Virus record (IMG/VR): IMGVR_UViG_3300045136_000130
Location: 1 to 36,713 of that record
From: a virus
Reading direction: 5' to 3' (one strand)
Length of the DNA: 36,713 bases
Shown here: in pieces, positions 1-36,713 of the stretch
How the letters are laid out: each line of letters begins with the position of its first letter
Numbering within the stretch: the first letter of the stretch is position 1
The notes under the pieces: generated by a model
Told to the model about the DNA's origin: nothing
Database searches by the model: none
What the model saw: only the letters and a program-made list of their open reading frames with translations
Program-made: the position numbers and the translations under genes

Positions 1-1955
1 ACGTCGTCGCGCTGCTGCGCGATGGTGTCGGAGATGAGCTGAAGCTGTTGATTGAGCTGCGCGAGATGCTGCTCCATGCCGAGCTTCAGCAGCTCGATCT
101 GATGCTTCGAGGCTTGGATGTCTCGCTGCGTGTCGCCGCGGATCATCTCCACGTCGATGCGGTTCTGGGCGCGCAGCTTCTCCAGCTCCAGCTCGATCGG
201 CGGCTGCTGCGGCTGGCTCGCGCCTTGCTTGATCGCATCCATCGTCTGGTCGATAACGCTCTCGACCTCTTTGCCGACCTTGAAGCCCGCGATCGCCCAT
301 TTGACGAGCTCCAGAACGACACCAGCAGCCTGAGGAGCCTGCTGCACGAGGGGCATCGTGCGCTCCATGAACACGCCGAGAGCGTCGAGCATCTGAGTCC
401 TCGACTCCCGCTCCTGCGCGTAGTCGATCGCTGCCATCGTATCCGGGTCGATCGAGACCCTCCACTCGAAGTCCTCAAAGCTCTTGATGAGCTGAATCGC
501 TTGCGGCGCGAGCTGGGCGTCGGCTGTGGCCTCGATGTTCGACCACTTCGCGATGCTCTCTGGCTGGCAATGGCGGCTGATGATCTCCGCCTTGATGCGG
601 CACGCGAACGCGACCCAGTCCGCAATCTCGCTCATCGTGAACTGGACTCGCGAGCTCCCGAATTGCGCCTTGAGCTGCTGGGCTCCGAGCGTCTCGTTCG
701 GGTCCGTTGCGCCTCGCATGATGTCGCTGATGCCGAGCACCTCATAGAGCTGCTGCTGCGCGGATGCAAGCTCTACTCGAAGCTGCGCAATGACGTTCGC
801 GATCTGCTCGATCGGGACCCAAGAGATGGTTCCCTGAACGCCGCCCTTCTCTGCGAACGCGGCCCAGTTGTCGACCGGGATCAGAGACAGCTCGCTGCCC
901 TCTTGGAACAACCTCTGGACGCTCCCTTTCGTGTTCTGGTCGTACAGGCCGGCCACCTTGCACGCCTTCACGAGCCACGAGATGCGCGTATTCAGTTCAT
1001 CGATCTGCGTGTAGATGTCCTGCGCCATCGCGTAGTCGCTCTTTGGCATGAAGCGCGAGCTCGTGAGATTCGCAGCGAGCGGTTTCGGGCACGGGAAGAA
1101 GCCTTCGAGTTGCAGCGGGTCGTCGCGAACGTCGAGGATCACAGGGCAACCTGGGCTGTACCAGTAGACCTTCTTCTCGTCCTTGCACCAGATCTCATAG
1201 ACGCACGCCTTCGACCACGCTTCAGACTGCACGTCGATCGGGCTCTCCGCCTTCTTCTTGTTCGTGTAGTTGAGCTGGCACGCGATCGTCTCACCGAACC
1301 GCTTCACAGCTTGGTCTTTCGTCAGATACGTACGACGAGAGACCCACCGGCATTCTTCCCACGTGCGGCAGGGCGACCAGTCGAAGTCCTCCCAGTACAC
1401 GTAGTCGACTGGAACCGACTCCTCCTTGATAACCTCTGCCTCGATCGGCTCGCCCATCGGTGCGCCCGTCACCGGGTCGATCGCGGGCTCGATCGTCTGC
1501 TTCTCGATCTCGACCTCGTAACGGACCCACACCTGACCGAGACCGACGATGAGACGATCCTTGATCGCTTGCTTGAACGCCTCACGATCGAATTTCCCGT
1601 CGTCCTGCAGCCCGCGATTCAGGATCCGCTCAAGGATGACGCCAGCGACGCGCGAGACGTCGTCCTGCGCGTCCTTGTGCATGCGGCTGACGTCGACCTT
1701 CGGCGGCCGGGCGAACAGCGCAGAAAGCAAGACCTGCGTCGTTGACCAGAACAGGTTGACGTTCTTGCGCTGGTCGTCGAAAAGGCCGTCGCGGTTGTCG
1801 AGATACCGCTGGACGACGACCTTCGACTTCTCCTTGAAGCTCTTCAGCTCTTTGCCGGCAGCCTCAAGCTCCTTCGCCCACAGCTCCGCCATCCCCTGCG
1901 GCGTCTTGTCGTAGCTGCTCGGTTGGTTGCTGTACGCGACGTCTTCCTTCTTCAT
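1..1955 (-). CDS. Portal (head-tail connector) protein, open at the window edge
   Basis: I translated this by hand from ATG at 1955; it stays open for 651 codons to base 3. The product forms the dodecameric portal ring at the capsid vertex through which DNA is packaged. Support is its position directly after TerL (ATGA overlap of TerL stop and portal ATG), its length, an N-terminal part with the motif LFARPPKVDVSR typical of podoviral portals, and a C-terminal helical Gln/Glu-rich region. If the window is circular, the frame continues from base 1 into base 36713 and reads QQRDDVKRRRDERFE before meeting the IS607-like element. Without that element the protein would end after about 662 residues. 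With it, the frame runs about 50 more codons into the element and stops at 36524-36526. Confidence 0.9.
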   Translation of the reverse strand, partial: MKKEDVAYSNQPSSYDKTPQGMAELWAKELEAAGKELKSFKEKSKVVVQRYLDNRDGLFDDQRKNVNLFWSTTQVLLSALFARPPKVDVSRMHKDAQDDVSRVAGVILERILNRGLQDDGKFDREAFKQAIKDRLIVGLGQVWVRYEVEIEKQTIEPAIDPVTGAPMGEPIEAEVIKEESVPVDYVYWEDFDWSPCRTWEECRWVSRRTYLTKDQAVKRFGETIACQLNYTNKKKAESPIDVQSEAWSKACVYEIWCKDEKKVYWYSPGCPVILDVRDDPLQLEGFFPCPKPLAANLTSSRFMPKSDYAMAQDIYTQIDELNTRISWLVKACKVAGLYDQNTKGSVQRLFQEGSELSLIPVDNWAAFAEKGGVQGTISWVPIEQIANVIAQLRVELASAQQQLYEVLGISDIMRGATDPNETLGAQQLKAQFGSSRVQFTMSEIADWVAFACRIKAEIISRHCQPESIAKWSNIEATADAQLAPQAIQLIKSFEDFEWRVSIDPDTMAAIDYAQERESRTQMLDALGVFMERTMPLVQQAPQAAGVVLELVKWAIAGFKVGKEVESVIDQTMDAIKQGASQPQQPPIELELEKLRAQNRIDVEMIRGDTQRDIQASKHQIELLKLGMEQHLAQLNQQLQLISDTIAQQRDD

Positions 1956-21712: not shown

Positions 21713-23106
21713 TACGTTACGTCCCCCATAACGATAGCTTCGGTCGCGCTGTTGAACCAGATGGTTGCCATCCCGCGCGCTGCCAGCGTTCGGTTGCCGG
21801 TGTTAGACGTACCTGATTGCCGCAGCGTCAGGCCAGAGCCCTGCGTGAGCGTGATCGATGATGCACTGTCGTTGTAGATGCTGAAACTGTCCCCGGCAGC
21901 GTACGTATTGGCCGGGATCGTCACGCCGGAAGTGAGAGCGATGCATTGAGCGACTTTCGCGGTGTTCAGAGTGGTGTCTGTAGTCCTCGGAACACGACGG
22001 AAGCCAATCTCGTTTGTCATACTGTCAACGCTGACGTATGACTTTCCGTCGGTCTGGAAGCTGATGCGGTTCTGGTTGTTCTGAGTCAGGTTGAATTGGG
22101 AGTTCGTCAAACCACCGAAGTAAAGCTGACCGCCGACTACTCGCCACGACGAGTTGACTCCGCTCGTGTGAAGGATGTTGATGTCGCCGTTATCTACCAA
22201 TTCAGCGATTACGTTTTCCGATCCGCTGACTCGTCTGCCAAACTGTAACTTCCAGCCAGTGTTATCGCCGAACAGAATCCTGCCTGCTACAGGTGACGAG
22301 TAACCCGCCGCAAGGGCGACGTTGCTCCCGATGACTGTATTTGGTAGACCTGTGGTGCTATTTACCAGTATGCTGCCGCCGCTGGTGAGTCCGCCGTTGA
22401 TCGTGTGGGTGCCGCTGGAAGGTGTGTTGATCGTGACGTTTCCATCTACGGAGATTGATACATGCGAACCCCCATTGCCGATGGCAGTAATGGACGTATA
22501 AGCGCCGGCAACGCGAGCGCTCGGTACAGTACCGCTCGCGAGGTTGGAGGCATTCAGGTTCGTCAGGTTAGCGCCGCTGACTGCCGGCAGGGTGGCTGGG
22601 AACCGGGCGTCCGGAACCGTACCGCTCGCGAGATTGGAGGCGTTCAGGTTCGTCAGGTTGGCACCGCTGATTGCCGGAAGGGTGGCCGGGAACCGGGCGT
22701 CCGGAACCGTACCGCTCGCGAGATTGGAGGCGTTCAGGCTCGTCAGGTTAGCACCGCTACCCGAGAACGCCCCGGAGGCTGATACGTCACCAGTGATTGA
22801 CAAACCTGTCGCCGAGAATGTCGCTCGCAGAACCCCCTGAATCGACACCGAGATCTGCCCAGCAGCCGGGCGGTAGAGACCGCTCGAAGTCTCCGAGTTG
22901 AACGAGATGGACGGGGTGCCAACCGTGCCGTCGGTGGCGCGGAAAGGTCCTGTCATCCCGCCTGCGCCGTTGCGTGCGAGCGAGTTCGTGATCTCCGCCG
23001 CTACGTCGTTCAGGGTGTTGTTCGCCCAAGACGCCTGAATCAGCGTGTTGGGGGACACCGGGTTCCCTGACGGGAGGGTGTAAACTCCTGCGTTGTTCCG
23101 AGGCAT
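21712..23106 (-). CDS. Tail fibre protein with 30-residue tandem repeats
   Basis: 464 residues. N-terminus MPRNNAGVYTLPSGNPVSPN with the following SWANNTLNDVAAEITNSLAR is a virion-attachment region widely found in podovirus fibres. Residues about 115-200 are three tandem units of the type SGANLTNLNASNLASGTVPD followed by ARFPATLPA. The C-terminal half is strand-rich and ends in NRTLAARGMATIWFNSATEA, a pattern seen in receptor-binding fibre tips. Probably the receptor-binding protein. AGGAGTAGGAG lies directly before the ATG. Confidence 0.9.
   Translation of the reverse strand: MPRNNAGVYTLPSGNPVSPNTLIQASWANNTLNDVAAEITNSLARNGAGGMTGPFRATDGTVGTPSISFNSETSSGLYRPAAGQISVSIQGVLRATFSATGLSITGDVSASGAFSGSGANLTSLNASNLASGTVPDARFPATLPAISGANLTNLNASNLASGTVPDARFPATLPAVSGANLTNLNASNLASGTVPSARVAGAYTSITAIGNGGSHVSISVDGNVTINTPSSGTHTINGGLTSGGSILVNSTTGLPNTVIGSNVALAAGYSSPVAGRILFGDNTGWKLQFGRRVSGSENVIAELVDNGDINILHTSGVNSSWRVVGGQLYFGGLTNSQFNLTQNNQNRISFQTDGKSYVSVDSMTNEIGFRRVPRTTDTTLNTAKVAQCIALTSGVTIPANTYAAGDSFSIYNDSASSITLTQGSGLTLRQSGTSNTGNRTLAARGMATIWFNSATEAIVMGDVT
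22525..22764 (-). repeat. 90-bp tandem repeats in the fibre gene
   Basis: The core ACCGCTCGCG (plus strand) recurs at 22531, 22621 and 22711, exactly 90 bases apart. Units two and three are nearly identical over their shared length. Each encodes 30 residues of the fibre shaft, so copy-number change would alter shaft length in frame. Confidence 0.85.
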
Positions 23107-34404: not shown

Positions 34405-34545
34405 TTAGAAGCTCTGGTTGTCTTCGCCGTTGTACGGAGCGTCGAGAGCTGACGCCGCCCCGATACCGTAAAGCGGCCCTTCCTTGCGGATGAGATACCT
34501 GCGCACCACTTCACGCGGCGAAAGATCGCGCTGAAAATCGCCCAT
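34405..34545 (-). CDS. Small head-region protein (46 aa)
   Basis: Translated by hand: ATG 34545 with CGGAGG about 8 bases upstream, stop TAA at 34405-34407, 11 bases before the scaffold ATG. Starts MGDFQRDLSPREVVRRYLIR, then a short Gly/Ala part ending NGEDNQSF. No family recognised. Tight spacing to both neighbours and a ribosome site support it. Confidence 0.65.
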   Translation of the reverse strand: MGDFQRDLSPREVVRRYLIRKEGPLYGIGAASALDAPYNGEDNQSF

Positions 34546-34547
34546 TC

Positions 34548-34916
34548 TTAACGCCTCCGCCTCTTCTCCAGTTCGTAGATGGCGCGTTCCACTGCCTCAC
34601 GACGCGCACGATGATCACCCCCCGTGGTGTAGTAGTCGGCGCGCTCTTTCGCGGCGCGCTCGAAGTGGTTGGTGAAGTCGTCGACGGTCGTCAACCCATG
34701 CCTTCTCATGTACTCGCGATGCTTCGATCGCGAACTGATGTCCGTACCATCTGACGCGCGCAGCCCGTCGTAGTGGCGATCGTTCCACAGCAGCCCGTCG
34801 GCCTTGTGGTGGTTGAACCCGCCCCTGCCGTGCTTCGTGTAGTACGACTCGGGCAACTCGTCGACACCCTTCTCGTACAGCTTCCCCTCGAAGTAGACGT
34901 AGGTCCGGCGCGCCAT
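34548..34916 (-). CDS. Head-region protein, unknown function (122 aa)
   Basis: ATG 34916 with GGGG 5-8 bases upstream; starts MARRTYVYFEGKLYEKGVDE. Contains the basic, Tyr-rich N-terminus typical of small podovirus proteins located after the portal (VYFEGKLYEKG), then SYYTKHGRGGFNHHKADGLL. C-terminus is helical and Arg-rich. No DNA-binding motif identified; probably a minor virion or assembly protein. Confidence 0.75.
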   Translation of the reverse strand: MARRTYVYFEGKLYEKGVDELPESYYTKHGRGGFNHHKADGLLWNDRHYDGLRASDGTDISSRSKHREYMRRHGLTTVDDFTNHFERAAKERADYYTTGGDHRARREAVERAIYELEKRRRR

Positions 34917-34925
34917 TTTCGCCCC

Positions 34926-35129
34926 TCAATGCTTGCTCTGCCTTGCGTAATGGATGATGCCCGCCAGGATGCGCACGATCTCGATCGCCGGGTCGGTCGT
35001 CCGATCGAAAGGCGGAAGACCGATCATGCCGAGAGCACGATCGAGCTCCGCGAGAGCGTAATCAAGGTCCGACACGGCATCGACCGGCGCAGCGGACAGG
35101 AGATACACCGTTCCGTCAGACTTACTCAT
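34926..35129 (-). CDS. Small phage protein (67 aa), next to the IS607-like element
   Basis: Starts MSKSDGTVYLLSAAPVDAVS, continues as helices (DLDYALAELDRALGMIGLPP; EIVRILAGIIHYARQ). No family recognised. Its ATG (35129-35127) lies one base inside the inferred right edge of the IS element, which cut it away from the portal gene. Without the element the portal stop would overlap this ATG. The element leaves only AGTCAGG as a possible ribosome site, so expression may now depend on transcription through tnpB. Confidence 0.7.
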   Translation of the reverse strand: MSKSDGTVYLLSAAPVDAVSDLDYALAELDRALGMIGLPPFDRTTDPAIEIVRILAGIIHYARQSKH

Positions 35130-35134
35130 CCTGA

Positions 35135-36343
35135 CTAGGCAGGAACAAAGCTGACTTCCTGCTTCGCAGAGGCCGGTTTCACCTTCGTCTTGCGACGAAG
35201 GCCAGAGCCTTCCTCTCCACAGGCGTTACTTCCGGCGGAACTCGCCGTAGTGAGTGCTAGGCGCTCAAGATTCTTTGCCGCATTCACGTCGCGGTCGTGG
35301 ATTGCGCCGCACGCCGGGCATGTCCACCTGCGCACCGAAAGCGGCAAGGTCTCCAGCTTGTGCCCGCACGCCGAGCAGGTCTTGCTGCTGGCGAAGAAGC
35401 GATCCGCGACCACCACTTGCCCACCGCGCATCACCGCCTTGTACTCCAACTGCCGCCTAAACTCGAAGAAGCTCATGTCGGCAATGGATCGGGCCAGATG
35501 CCGGTTCTTCACCATGCCGCGCACGTTCAGGTGCTCGATGCCGATGGTGTGGAACCGGCGTGTGAGGCTGGTGGTGAGCTTGTGCATGGCGTCCTGCCGG
35601 ATGGCAGCGATGCGTGCGTGCAGTTTCGCCAGCCTGGCCTTGGCCTTGCGGCGGCTGGCCGATCCCTTTTGCTTGCGCGACAGGCTGCGCGAGAGCCTGC
35701 GCAAGCGGTCCAATAGCACCTTGTGGGCCTTCGGACCAGGGATTGTTTCTCCCGTCGAGAGTGTTGCCAGCGCCGAGACACCCAAGTCCACACCGACCAC
35801 GCCTTGGTTCTCGGCTTTGGGCAGGTGTGAGTGATCGGGCGTGTCCACGGTGATGCTGACGAACCAGCGGTCGGCCACACGGGAGACCGTAGCCGACTTG
35901 ATCTTGCCGTTGAATCGCAACGACTCGCGCATGCGCACCCAGCCGAGTTTGGGGATGCGAATGCGACAGCCGTCGAGGTCGAACTGGTCGTTGGTGAGGG
36001 TGAAGCGGTCGTCGCGGCCTTTCTTTCGAAACTGCGGATAGCGGGCGCGGCCCGCAAAGAAGTTCTTGAATGCGTCCCCAAGCTGGATGATCGCCATCTG
36101 CGGGGCACACTTGGTGACTTCGAGCATCCAGGGAAACTGCTCGCGCTTGATGGTGTTGAGCTGACGGCGCAGCGCCATCTCGTTGGGTTTAGGCAATGTT
36201 GGATTAGCCTTGTGGGCTTCGTACTGCTTCTGCCACTGCTCCAGCGCCCAGTTGTACGCCTTGCGGGCAACGCCCGCAGCCTTGGCAAAGTGCGCTGCCT
36301 GCCCGTTGTTGGGATCGAGCGCGATTTTGTGGGCGATCAGCAT
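35135..36343 (-). CDS. tnpB: TnpB RNA-guided nuclease, IS607-associated
   Basis: 402 residues. RuvC residues all visible: Asp186 in VVGVDLGVSALATLS, Glu270 in TIGIEHLNVRGM, Asp352 in AIHDRDVNAAKNL. The zinc ribbon has CSAC (323-326) and CPAC (342-345). N-terminal helical/WED-like part looks complete, so an active enzyme is expected. TnpB family members are guided by an omega RNA made from the 3' end of the gene and the adjoining element end, and cut the empty target site to keep the element. The ATG overlaps the tnpA stop. Confidence 0.95.
   Translation of the reverse strand: MLIAHKIALDPNNGQAAHFAKAAGVARKAYNWALEQWQKQYEAHKANPTLPKPNEMALRRQLNTIKREQFPWMLEVTKCAPQMAIIQLGDAFKNFFAGRARYPQFRKKGRDDRFTLTNDQFDLDGCRIRIPKLGWVRMRESLRFNGKIKSATVSRVADRWFVSITVDTPDHSHLPKAENQGVVGVDLGVSALATLSTGETIPGPKAHKVLLDRLRRLSRSLSRKQKGSASRRKAKARLAKLHARIAAIRQDAMHKLTTSLTRRFHTIGIEHLNVRGMVKNRHLARSIADMSFFEFRRQLEYKAVMRGGQVVVADRFFASSKTCSACGHKLETLPLSVRRWTCPACGAIHDRDVNAAKNLERLALTTASSAGSNACGEEGSGLRRKTKVKPASAKQEVSFVPA
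35139..35162 (-). ncRNA. Hairpin at the tnpB 3' end, candidate omega RNA end
   Basis: Minus strand GCAGGAA (35162-35156), 10-base loop, TTCCTGC (35145-35139), eight bases before the inferred element edge. A stem at the 3' end of tnpB next to the right end is the position of the guide-proximal omega RNA hairpin in studied TnpB systems. The guide would then be the first bases of the next phage gene. The full RNA boundary was not determined. Confidence 0.5.
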
Positions 36344-36627
36344 TGCGCAGCCTCCAATGCCTTGCGCACTCCGTCCAGCAGGACAAGAAATTTGTCATTG
36401 CTTATGCCATACCTGCGAGCAATCAGCACCGCAAAAAGCTCCAGATCACTCATGCTTGCATGGGCTGGCACACTCTGGGCGAGCCGCGTCAAGTCATAGC
36501 GCCGACGACCACCCGGCGTGCGCTCATCCGGCATCAGCTTGCCTTCGCGCTCCCAGCGCCGCAGCGTCTGTGCCGCGACGCCCAGAAACTCGGCGGCTTC
36601 GTGAATGCTGACCATCTTGCGGGGCAT
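36337..36627 (-). CDS. Truncated IS607-type TnpA: MerR-like helix-turn-helix without the recombinase domain
   Basis: 96 residues from ATG 36627. The first ~50 are the MerR-like DNA-binding domain of IS607 TnpA: SIHEAAEFLGVAAQTLRRWE followed by GKLMPDERTPGGRRRYDLTR. In full-length proteins (about 200 residues) a serine recombinase domain beginning with YxRVSS follows. Here it is absent; after AQSVPAHA comes SDLELFAVLIARRYG and LLDGVRKALEAAQC, which resembles the C-terminal end of IS607 TnpAs. This looks like an in-frame internal deletion. An ATG at 36642 is in frame, but it lies at the -10 of the predicted promoter. Such a protein can bind the ends but cannot recombine. Confidence 0.8.
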   Translation of the reverse strand: MPRKMVSIHEAAEFLGVAAQTLRRWEREGKLMPDERTPGGRRRYDLTRLAQSVPAHASMSDLELFAVLIARRYGISNDKFLVLLDGVRKALEAAQC

Positions 36628-36633
36628 GCTCAC

Positions 36634-36662
36634 AATATACATGAAAAAGCAAGAACGCGCAA
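36634..36662 (-). promoter_or_regulatory. Candidate promoter of the IS607-like element
   Basis: Minus strand TTGCGC (36662-36657), 17-base spacer, TATATT (36639-36634). It would start transcription just before ATG 36627, so the mRNA would have almost no leader and the upstream in-frame ATG at 36642 would not be transcribed. Confidence 0.4.
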
Positions 36663-36713
36663 CTAGAATGTAAACTGTTCAAGCCCTCGAATCGCTCATC
36701 GCGTCGCCTCTTC

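What the first reader, a model, noticed from the sequence alone, without database searches (positions are those of the whole stretch)
35120..36713. IS607-like element inserted exactly at the portal stop / next-gene start junction of a circularly closing genome
The portal frame, open at base 1, continues across the window ends to 36713 and reads sensibly (QQRDDV then KRRRDERFE). If bases 35131-36684 are removed, the portal reads on to RFEG and stops in an ATGA overlap with the 67-aa gene, the same junction type used throughout this arm; shifting one base gives RFEDE and a stop. So the element sits at a GG inside the last codons of the portal gene. In the present state the portal gains about 50 foreign codons read from the element (stop at 36524-36526). 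Either the phage tolerates a tailed portal protein, or the insertion is a minority variant.
Basis: partly seen in the sequence, partly recalled or inferred. Interest (0 to 1): 0.75.

Follow-up and report, generated by a model that had tools for sequence, protein, structure and literature searches.

The report
Transposase-dead IS607 element in a phage
A bacterial jumping gene that has lost the core of its own jumping enzyme but kept its RNA-guided DNA-cutter sits at the start of a small phage gene, not in the portal gene, and offers that gene a replacement start codon.

Summary
The IS607-like element is real; the portal/circle reading is wrong. Two close relatives (98% portal identity) show that the portal continues QQRDDV-RAQLQQ... 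for 90-95 residues; in one of them 2,344 bp, absent from this contig, separate the window's two ends. Base 1 is most simply an assembly break. The last 29 bp are the end of another small gene plus codons 1-5 of the "67-aa gene", so the element interrupts codon 6 of that gene; both relatives have the empty site (ATGAGCGACACGAGG|GTGTATC). The right end is at 35108-35110, not 35131: related elements share ends that put 35131 inside the terminal hairpin of a covarying TnpB guide RNA. The element body is 1,574 bp with GG on each side. TnpB keeps its catalytic triad; "TnpA" is a 101-aa remnant, a MerR-type DNA-binding domain plus a tail, without the serine-recombinase core. Defective or missing TnpA is common in this clade (43 of 75 readable genome copies). 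An ATG in the element's right end restarts the small gene in frame (MSKSDGT-VYLLS...). The predicted guide matches the empty site of both relatives, consistent with untested RNA-guided drive. A known kind, well resolved.

The parts
35110..36683 (-). IS607-derived element body, 1,574 bp (net insertion 1,576 bp with one GG)
   Evidence: Empty site ATGAGCGACACGAGGGTGTATCTCC in L003 and L004; best plasmid alignments stop at 36686 and 35108 although the query went further; shared ends in related loci
36684..36685 (-). GG core at the left end (third G at 36686; the clear left ends that I read have GGG)
35108..35109 (-). GG core at the right end
36337..36642 (-). 101-aa TnpA remnant: MerR-type HTH (Pfam match residues 12-49) plus C-terminal tail; serine-recombinase core absent
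   Evidence: Pfam MerR 2.2e-14, no resolvase domain; matches residues 1-49 (94%) and 175-209 (57%) of the 209-aa TnpA of L082; DNA alignment
35135..36343 (-). TnpB, 402 aa; its ATG overlaps the stop codon of the TnpA remnant
   Evidence: D186, E270, D352 invariant in all nine aligned sequences, window included
35108..35249 (-). Covarying part of the TnpB guide RNA scaffold (omega/reRNA), overlapping the 3' end of tnpB; weak RAGATH-18-like match at 35156-35223
   Evidence: Covariation in 50 right ends; RAGATH-18 22.5 bits, E 0.33, gathering 44.9, and sub-threshold at the same place relative to tnpB in 9 of 10 relatives
35088..35107 (-). Predicted 20-nt guide, i.e. phage flank just after the right-end GG
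   Evidence: First 28 nt of the flank identical in L003 and L004 (29 of 30 overall); start after the fixed right-flanking base follows ISXfa1 in PMC10711439 (passages)
36673..36686 (-). Conserved left end, GGGCTTGAACAGTT
36685..36699 (-). Native first five codons of the interrupted small gene (ATGAGCGATTCGAGG); this frame now stops in the element after MSDSRA
34926..35129 (-). Rest of the small gene with an element-borne ATG: MSKSDGT + VYLLSAAPVD... (67 aa; native 65-aa forms in L003/L004 begin MSDTR + VYLLS)
36696..36713 (-).
1..1955 (-). Portal gene, cut by the contig end after residue 651 (741 and 746 aa in L003 and L004)

Best explanation
A non-autonomous IS607-derived insertion sequence entered codon 6 of a small gene in the structural region of a phage. 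Its TnpA has lost the catalytic domain, so it was most likely inserted by an IS607 TnpA acting in trans from the host or another element, by GG-to-GG serine recombination, or it lost the domain after landing. It keeps a TnpB with its catalytic triad and a structured guide RNA whose guide is the phage flank, so it should cut phages with the empty site and favour copies that carry the element. The phage may tolerate it because the right end carries an ATG, five bases after the tnpB stop, that reads in frame into the small gene and replaces MSDSR by MSKSDGT. Shown: boundaries, empty sites, domain loss, covarying guide-RNA structure, in-frame ATG. Inferred: movement in trans, nuclease drive, actual translation of the restarted gene, tolerance.
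For: Empty sites in 2 of 2 fetched relatives that cover the locus. Element ends shared with related elements in unrelated flanks. TnpA core missing against L082 and seven other intact TnpAs. TnpA-defective or TnpA-less copies are frequent: 43 of 75 genome loci with enough upstream sequence (5 more of 80 cut), 5 of 7 plasmid and 5 of 7 viral loci (copies of one genome count separately; 'intact' means at least 190 of 209 residues in one frame, and none of the 36 intact ones has a stop inside). TnpA-less units are repeated in one genome: 10 Thiothrix fructosivorans loci without TnpA, six of them with a 156-nt leader that is identical but for one base in one copy; that genome also holds a full-length TnpA frame at 75% identity and a more distant one at 39%. 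Guide RNA: 39 pairs, 93.7% of cells paired, 282 cells with compensatory change against a shuffle mean of 84 and 36-55 in slid controls. Guide-side flank identical for 28 nt in both empty relatives. TnpB gene drive shown for an IS200/605 element in plasmids (PMC11870625: abstract and discussion); IS607 TnpBs are RNA-guided nucleases (PMC11061315 and PMC10711439: passages).
Against: Only 29 bp of left flank exist, so a chimeric contig is not fully excluded. No reads, expression or cleavage data. A Malikia MAG with eight TnpA-less copies has no TnpA match at all, so trans mobilisation is not shown there (the MAG may be incomplete). The RAGATH-18 match is below threshold wherever tested, absent in one of ten relatives, and in the window it was outranked by a chance-level match on the other strand. 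The RNA structure was predicted from the same alignment on which it was counted, and the window RNA alone folds only modestly better than shuffles (z -1.99, 7 of 200 as good). The TAM is not established. The restart ATG has no well-placed ribosome-binding site; re-initiation after tnpB is assumed, and an in-frame exit has a one-in-three chance.
Confidence: 0.78

Rival explanations
1. The 101-aa TnpA remnant is not debris: it is a DNA-binding regulator (HTH plus C-terminal helix) that binds the element's left end, represses tnpB and/or poisons intact TnpA complexes.
For: HTH about as conserved as among intact TnpAs (window to L082 dN 0.03, dS 0.82; to L116 dN 0.02, dS 0.81) while the tail is strongly changed (dN 0.40-0.51 to six intact TnpAs; intact L082 to the other five 0.04-0.09) (the six comparators done before the script stopped). 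Other cut-down TnpAs that keep the HTH: Geoalkalibacter (117 aa, keeps part of the core) and Thiodictyon (58 aa, same deletion on two contigs). TnpA of IS1535 without residues 1-50 does not bind its ends (PMC6188088, passages).
Against: No relative of the tail was confirmed in the genome or viral scans. Tail dS (1.5-3.2) is well above that of the HTH and TnpB (0.5-1.0), so the tail may be a recombinant or scrambled piece rather than a selected domain. Breakpoints differ between cases. Of eight HTH-retaining deletions that I could read, five keep frame and three do not, not clearly above chance. HTH similarity may simply predate a recent deletion.
Confidence: 0.2
2. Recent debris: a dying copy, deleted after insertion, with no present function for TnpB or the remnant.
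For: TnpA core is gone; such loss is common in the clade; of RAGATH-18-associated IS607 loci 80% have two ORFs and 30% of those TnpAs are pseudo (PMC11061315, passages).
Against: TnpB is open with its triad; the guide RNA fold is kept in the family and formed in the window (modest z).
Confidence: 0.25
3. One reading: insertion at the portal stop in an exactly closing circle.
For: The frame across the joined ends is open.
Against: Four of four relatives that reach further read RAQLQQ at that point, and two place about 2.3-2.4 kb between the window's ends.
Confidence: 0.02
4. Assembly chimera: the element belongs to a host chromosome and was joined to the phage contig.
For: The left flank is only 29 bp and the contig ends there.
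Against: The right flank is continuous phage DNA (97% to L003), and the two flanks meet at one GGG in two empty relatives.
Confidence: 0.05

Closest known systems
IS607 family: complete relatives with both ends and intact TnpA (genome loci L123, L124); best DNA match L082 (IMGVR_UViG_3300045256_000126)
   Same: Gene order tnpA-tnpB with overlapping stop/start; L123/L124 share both ends; L082 TnpB 84% identical in protein and DNA
   Different: The window TnpA lacks the serine-recombinase core and the element is about 1.58 kb instead of about 1.9 kb. L082 has intact TnpA and TnpB, but its flanks do not match the conserved left and right ends, so it is not itself a complete element
ISFba1-type IS607 TnpB with RAGATH-18-derived reRNA (PMC11061315, passages)
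   Same: IS607 TnpB with a 3' guide RNA; weak RAGATH-18 match at the expected place and strand
   Different: Match is sub-threshold; here the RNA overlaps the tnpB coding sequence, while that paper describes reRNAs independent of it
TnpB gene drive of an IS200/605 element in plasmids (PMC11870625, abstract and discussion)
   Same: Guide copies the insertion-site flank, so copies without the element are targets
   Different: Here the carrier is a phage, the family IS607, and nothing has been tested
Other TnpA-less or TnpA-deleted copies (Geoalkalibacter pGSUB1 L086; viral L091, L092, L093, L096; Thiothrix and Malikia multicopy units)
   Same: TnpB kept, TnpA cut down or lost
   Different: Breakpoints differ case by case; no relative of the window's diverged tail was confirmed

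Membership tests
IS607 family | TnpA with N-terminal HTH and serine-recombinase catalytic domain | tested here: not met
   HTH plus tail only; catalytic core deleted. The element is therefore filed as a transposase-dead derivative, not a complete IS607 element
IS607 family | Insertion at GG without target duplication | tested here: met
   Empty sites of L003 and L004 against both junctions; GG target and (G)GG preference in PMC6188088 (passages)
IS607 family | Ends shared with elements that carry intact IS607 TnpA | tested here: met
   e.g. L119, L123, L124, L126, L127; not L082
TnpB RNA-guided nuclease | Family profile and RuvC triad | tested here: met
   NF040570 guided_TnpB 326.1 bits, cut-off 100; below the stricter cut-offs of NF038281 IS200_TnpB (337.8, cut-off 425) and NF038280 IS607_TnpB (299.1, cut-off 350); D186/E270/D352 invariant in nine sequences. 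Assignment of the triad is by motif, partly recalled; ISFba1 has D194/E290/D371 (PMC11061315)
TnpB RNA-guided nuclease | Structured guide RNA at the right end | tested here: met
   Covarying structure ending at the right boundary; no expression data
TnpB RNA-guided nuclease | DNA cleavage next to a TAM | not testable with these tools
   No assay
RAGATH-18 RNA (RF03064) | Score at or above the gathering threshold | tested here: not met
   22.5 bits in the window; 24.4-28.3 in 9 of 10 relatives, E 0.36-3.7; none at gathering in 20 loci; threshold 44.9
Nuclease-dead TnpB (TldR) | Loss of RuvC catalytic residues | tested here: not met
   Triad present; the definition of TldR is recalled

The most novel reading that the evidence does not exclude
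A phage-borne, transposase-dead TnpB element works as an RNA-guided homing drive between co-infecting phages: TnpB cuts the empty small-gene site of sister phages, repair copies the element across, the right-end ATG keeps the target gene alive, and the DNA-binding TnpA remnant regulates it. Spread among phages would then no longer need transposition at all.
Probability: 0.2. Interest if true: 0.72.

Novelty: new member of a known kind. Interest (0 to 1): 0.36.

Why it matters
It corrects a misread genome closure and gives a base-resolved case of an IS607-derived element in a phage with two empty-site relatives, a TnpB with its triad, and a predicted guide that matches those relatives. That makes a simple test possible of whether TnpB elements drive between phages as one has been shown to do between plasmids. 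The outward ATG in the right end (exact motif in 24 of the 76 right ends found) is a plausible reason why some insertions at gene starts can be tolerated.

Tried and rejected
Rejected: exact circular closure and tailed portal; right end at 35131 (inside the terminal guide-RNA hairpin); the remnant's tail as a widespread family (340 pattern stretches in genomes and 20 in viral contigs, none confirmed; relaxed tblastn gave two plasmid records, best E 0.1, the C-terminus of the cut-down TnpA of L100, and 31 phage records, best E 2); RAGATH-18 as a formal hit. Frame preservation of HTH-retaining deletions is 5 of 8 by my reading and is not claimed.

Weak or failed steps: one search failed (search term too short) and was asked again with longer terms. 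One search stopped with an error after six of eleven comparators; only those six are cited. One search found no frames because of a wrong motif. One search aligned the HTH without gaps and dropped 5 of 36 loci; its HTH and tail numbers are not used, only its counts by source. In one search the script labelled the window "upstream cut" because the contig has only 370 bp upstream; it is counted as defective. The right-end search required ACGG, so the constant C before GG is by construction and not claimed; left ends were found by pattern in part of the loci only, others read by eye. Two of 36 "intact" TnpAs lack the exact YARVS[SR] motif (L110, L151). Left out of the TnpA count: L083-L085, L087-L090, L095, L097-L099 and the more distant viral loci L188-L254. 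Of 94 loci, 78 gave a right end, two of them false (L171, L183) and dropped; 50 of the other 76, picked by hand to thin near-duplicates, were aligned for the RNA.

Full report
What was claimed. Mechanically the join does read that way, but relatives show it is a coincidence.

Where the window really ends. The window is a whole virus record of 36,713 bases without exact direct or inverted terminal repeats of 6-200 bases. A scan with the portal (128 relatives, best 80 kept) gave five close full-length ones, L002-L006, 98-100% identical. L002 is identical to window 1-22738 and stops at the same base, so base 1 is most simply an assembly break. L003, L004, L005 and L006 continue QQRDDV-RAQLQQ... 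in a glutamine-rich, variable tail; the portal ORF is 741 aa in L003 and 746 aa in L004. After it come a 424-aa fibre-like ORF, small ORFs, a 64/65-aa ORF ending EQATR/EEATR, and only then the small gene (MSDTRVYLLSAAPVD...). In the 38,688-bp contig of L003 the stretch missing from the window is 2,344 bp. The window's ends do face each other on the map: L003's contig ends both fall in one 90-bp tandem-repeat region (about window 22522-22758), which suggests but does not prove a circular or permuted genome.

Where the element sits. The last 29 bases beyond the element match L003 and L004 at 26 of 29 positions each, across the end of the 64/65-aa ORF and the first five codons of the small gene. 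The other flank is 97% identical to L003 over 34542-35109. Together they meet at the empty site of both relatives: ATGAGCGACACGAGG|GTGTATCTCC. A pattern scan of viral contigs that accepts filled and empty forms found only these two, both empty (the window's own record may be left out of such scans).

Boundaries. The best plasmid alignments stop at 36686 on one side (Allochromatium) and at 35108 on the other (Hydrogenophilus, Cupriavidus malaysiensis, Thiodictyon), although the query ran on to 36713 and 35050. Right ends of related loci share ...CAGGAATGAGTAAGTCTGACGGAAC-GG or a variant of it, followed by unrelated flanks; the left ends that I could read share GGG-TTTGAACAGTT or a variant. The body is 35110-36683 with GG on each side. 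GG, with (G)GG preferred, is the target of IS607 (PMC6188088, passages).

What the element encodes. TnpB (402 aa) has the expected domains and a D186/E270/D352 triad, invariant among the nine aligned sequences. The upstream ORF (101 aa) has only a MerR-type HTH. Against the 209-aa TnpA of L082 it matches residues 1-49 at 94% and 175-209 at 57%; the catalytic core is gone. L082 itself keeps both proteins but not the conserved ends; complete relatives are, for example, L123 and L124, about 1.9 kb. The HTH is little changed (dN 0.03, dS 0.82 to L082), the tail much changed (dN 0.40, dS 3.2) (six comparators); the high dS leaves open that the tail was recombined rather than slowly diverged. No relative of the tail was confirmed elsewhere.

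How common this is. With an alignment of nine TnpBs, 80 genome loci were returned (484 found, best 80 kept). TnpA was intact in 32, defective or absent in 43, and not readable in 5; plasmid loci 2 intact of 7; viral loci 2 intact of 7, the window among the defective (loci left out are listed under Tried and rejected; copies of one genome count separately). Ten TnpA-less loci lie in Thiothrix fructosivorans; six of these share a 156-nt leader that differs in one base of one copy, and the genome also holds a full-length TnpA frame at 75% identity and another at 39%. Eight lie in a Malikia MAG that shows no TnpA. PMC11061315 (passages) reports two ORFs in 80% of its IS607 loci, with 30% of those TnpAs pseudo. 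So this is an ordinary fate for the family.

Guide RNA. In 50 right ends a six-helix structure of 39 pairs that ends just before the right boundary is kept in 93.7% of cells, with 282 compensatory cells; shuffles give a mean of 84 (0 of 500 reach 282) and slid controls 36-55. The structure came from the same alignment, which favours it against the slid controls. The window RNA alone folds modestly better than shuffles (z -1.99). Rfam gives a RAGATH-18 match on the right strand, 48 nt from the right end, below threshold and second to a chance-level match on the other strand; the same sub-threshold match appears in 9 of 10 relatives tried (L105 had none) and none passes the gathering score in 20 loci. 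In IS607 ISXfa1 the fixed right-flanking nucleotide belongs to the scaffold and the guide follows (PMC10711439, passages); the predicted guide here, TGTATCTCCTGTCCGCTGCG, is identical in both empty relatives.

The interrupted gene. From its native start the frame now stops after six codons (MSDSRA*), but the right end carries ATGAGTAAGTCTGACGGAACGG, which runs in frame into the rest: MSKSDGT-VYLLSAAPVD. The ATG lies five bases after the tnpB stop, so re-initiation is plausible but untested. The motif ATGAGYAAGTCTnnnnGAACGG is present in 24 of 76 right ends; an in-frame exit has a one-in-three chance.

How it probably works, and how sure. Insertion of a TnpA-dead or later TnpA-deleted element by IS607 chemistry in trans: likely, inferred. 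Retention or spread through TnpB cutting of empty sites: plausible, by analogy with the IS200/605 plasmid drive of PMC11870625 (abstract and discussion). Literature on IS607 TnpB and on TnpB in phages was looked for (listings with starts of abstracts). PMC11437467 (passages) reports TnpB genes next to CRISPR-like arrays in Thermus phages, and proposes a function without a test in the passages seen. I saw no test of an IS607 TnpB as a drive between phages in those results, which is no proof that none exists.

Verdict. A well-resolved but ordinary kind of event: a transposase-dead IS607 derivative in a phage. The portal, circle and tailed-protein story should be dropped.

Noticed in passing
window 34518-34542: The contigs of L003 and L004 carry about 2.2 kb here (including a 303-aa ORF) that the window lacks.
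   Followed up: partly
window 22504-22758: A region of 90-bp tandem repeats in which the contig of L003 breaks at both ends.
   Followed up: partly
L091, L092, L093, L096: Four other viral contigs carry related elements with TnpA cut down in different ways (in L091 only 18 codons remain, in frame) and TnpB kept.
   Followed up: partly
L184/L277 and L278: An uncultured Thiodictyon MAG holds the same HTH-only TnpA deletion in front of tnpB on two contigs.
   Followed up: partly
L003 5954-6226, L004 5954-6241: Portal C-terminal tails are glutamine-rich and vary in length between otherwise 98% identical phages, a possible cause of the assembly break at window base 1.
   Followed up: no
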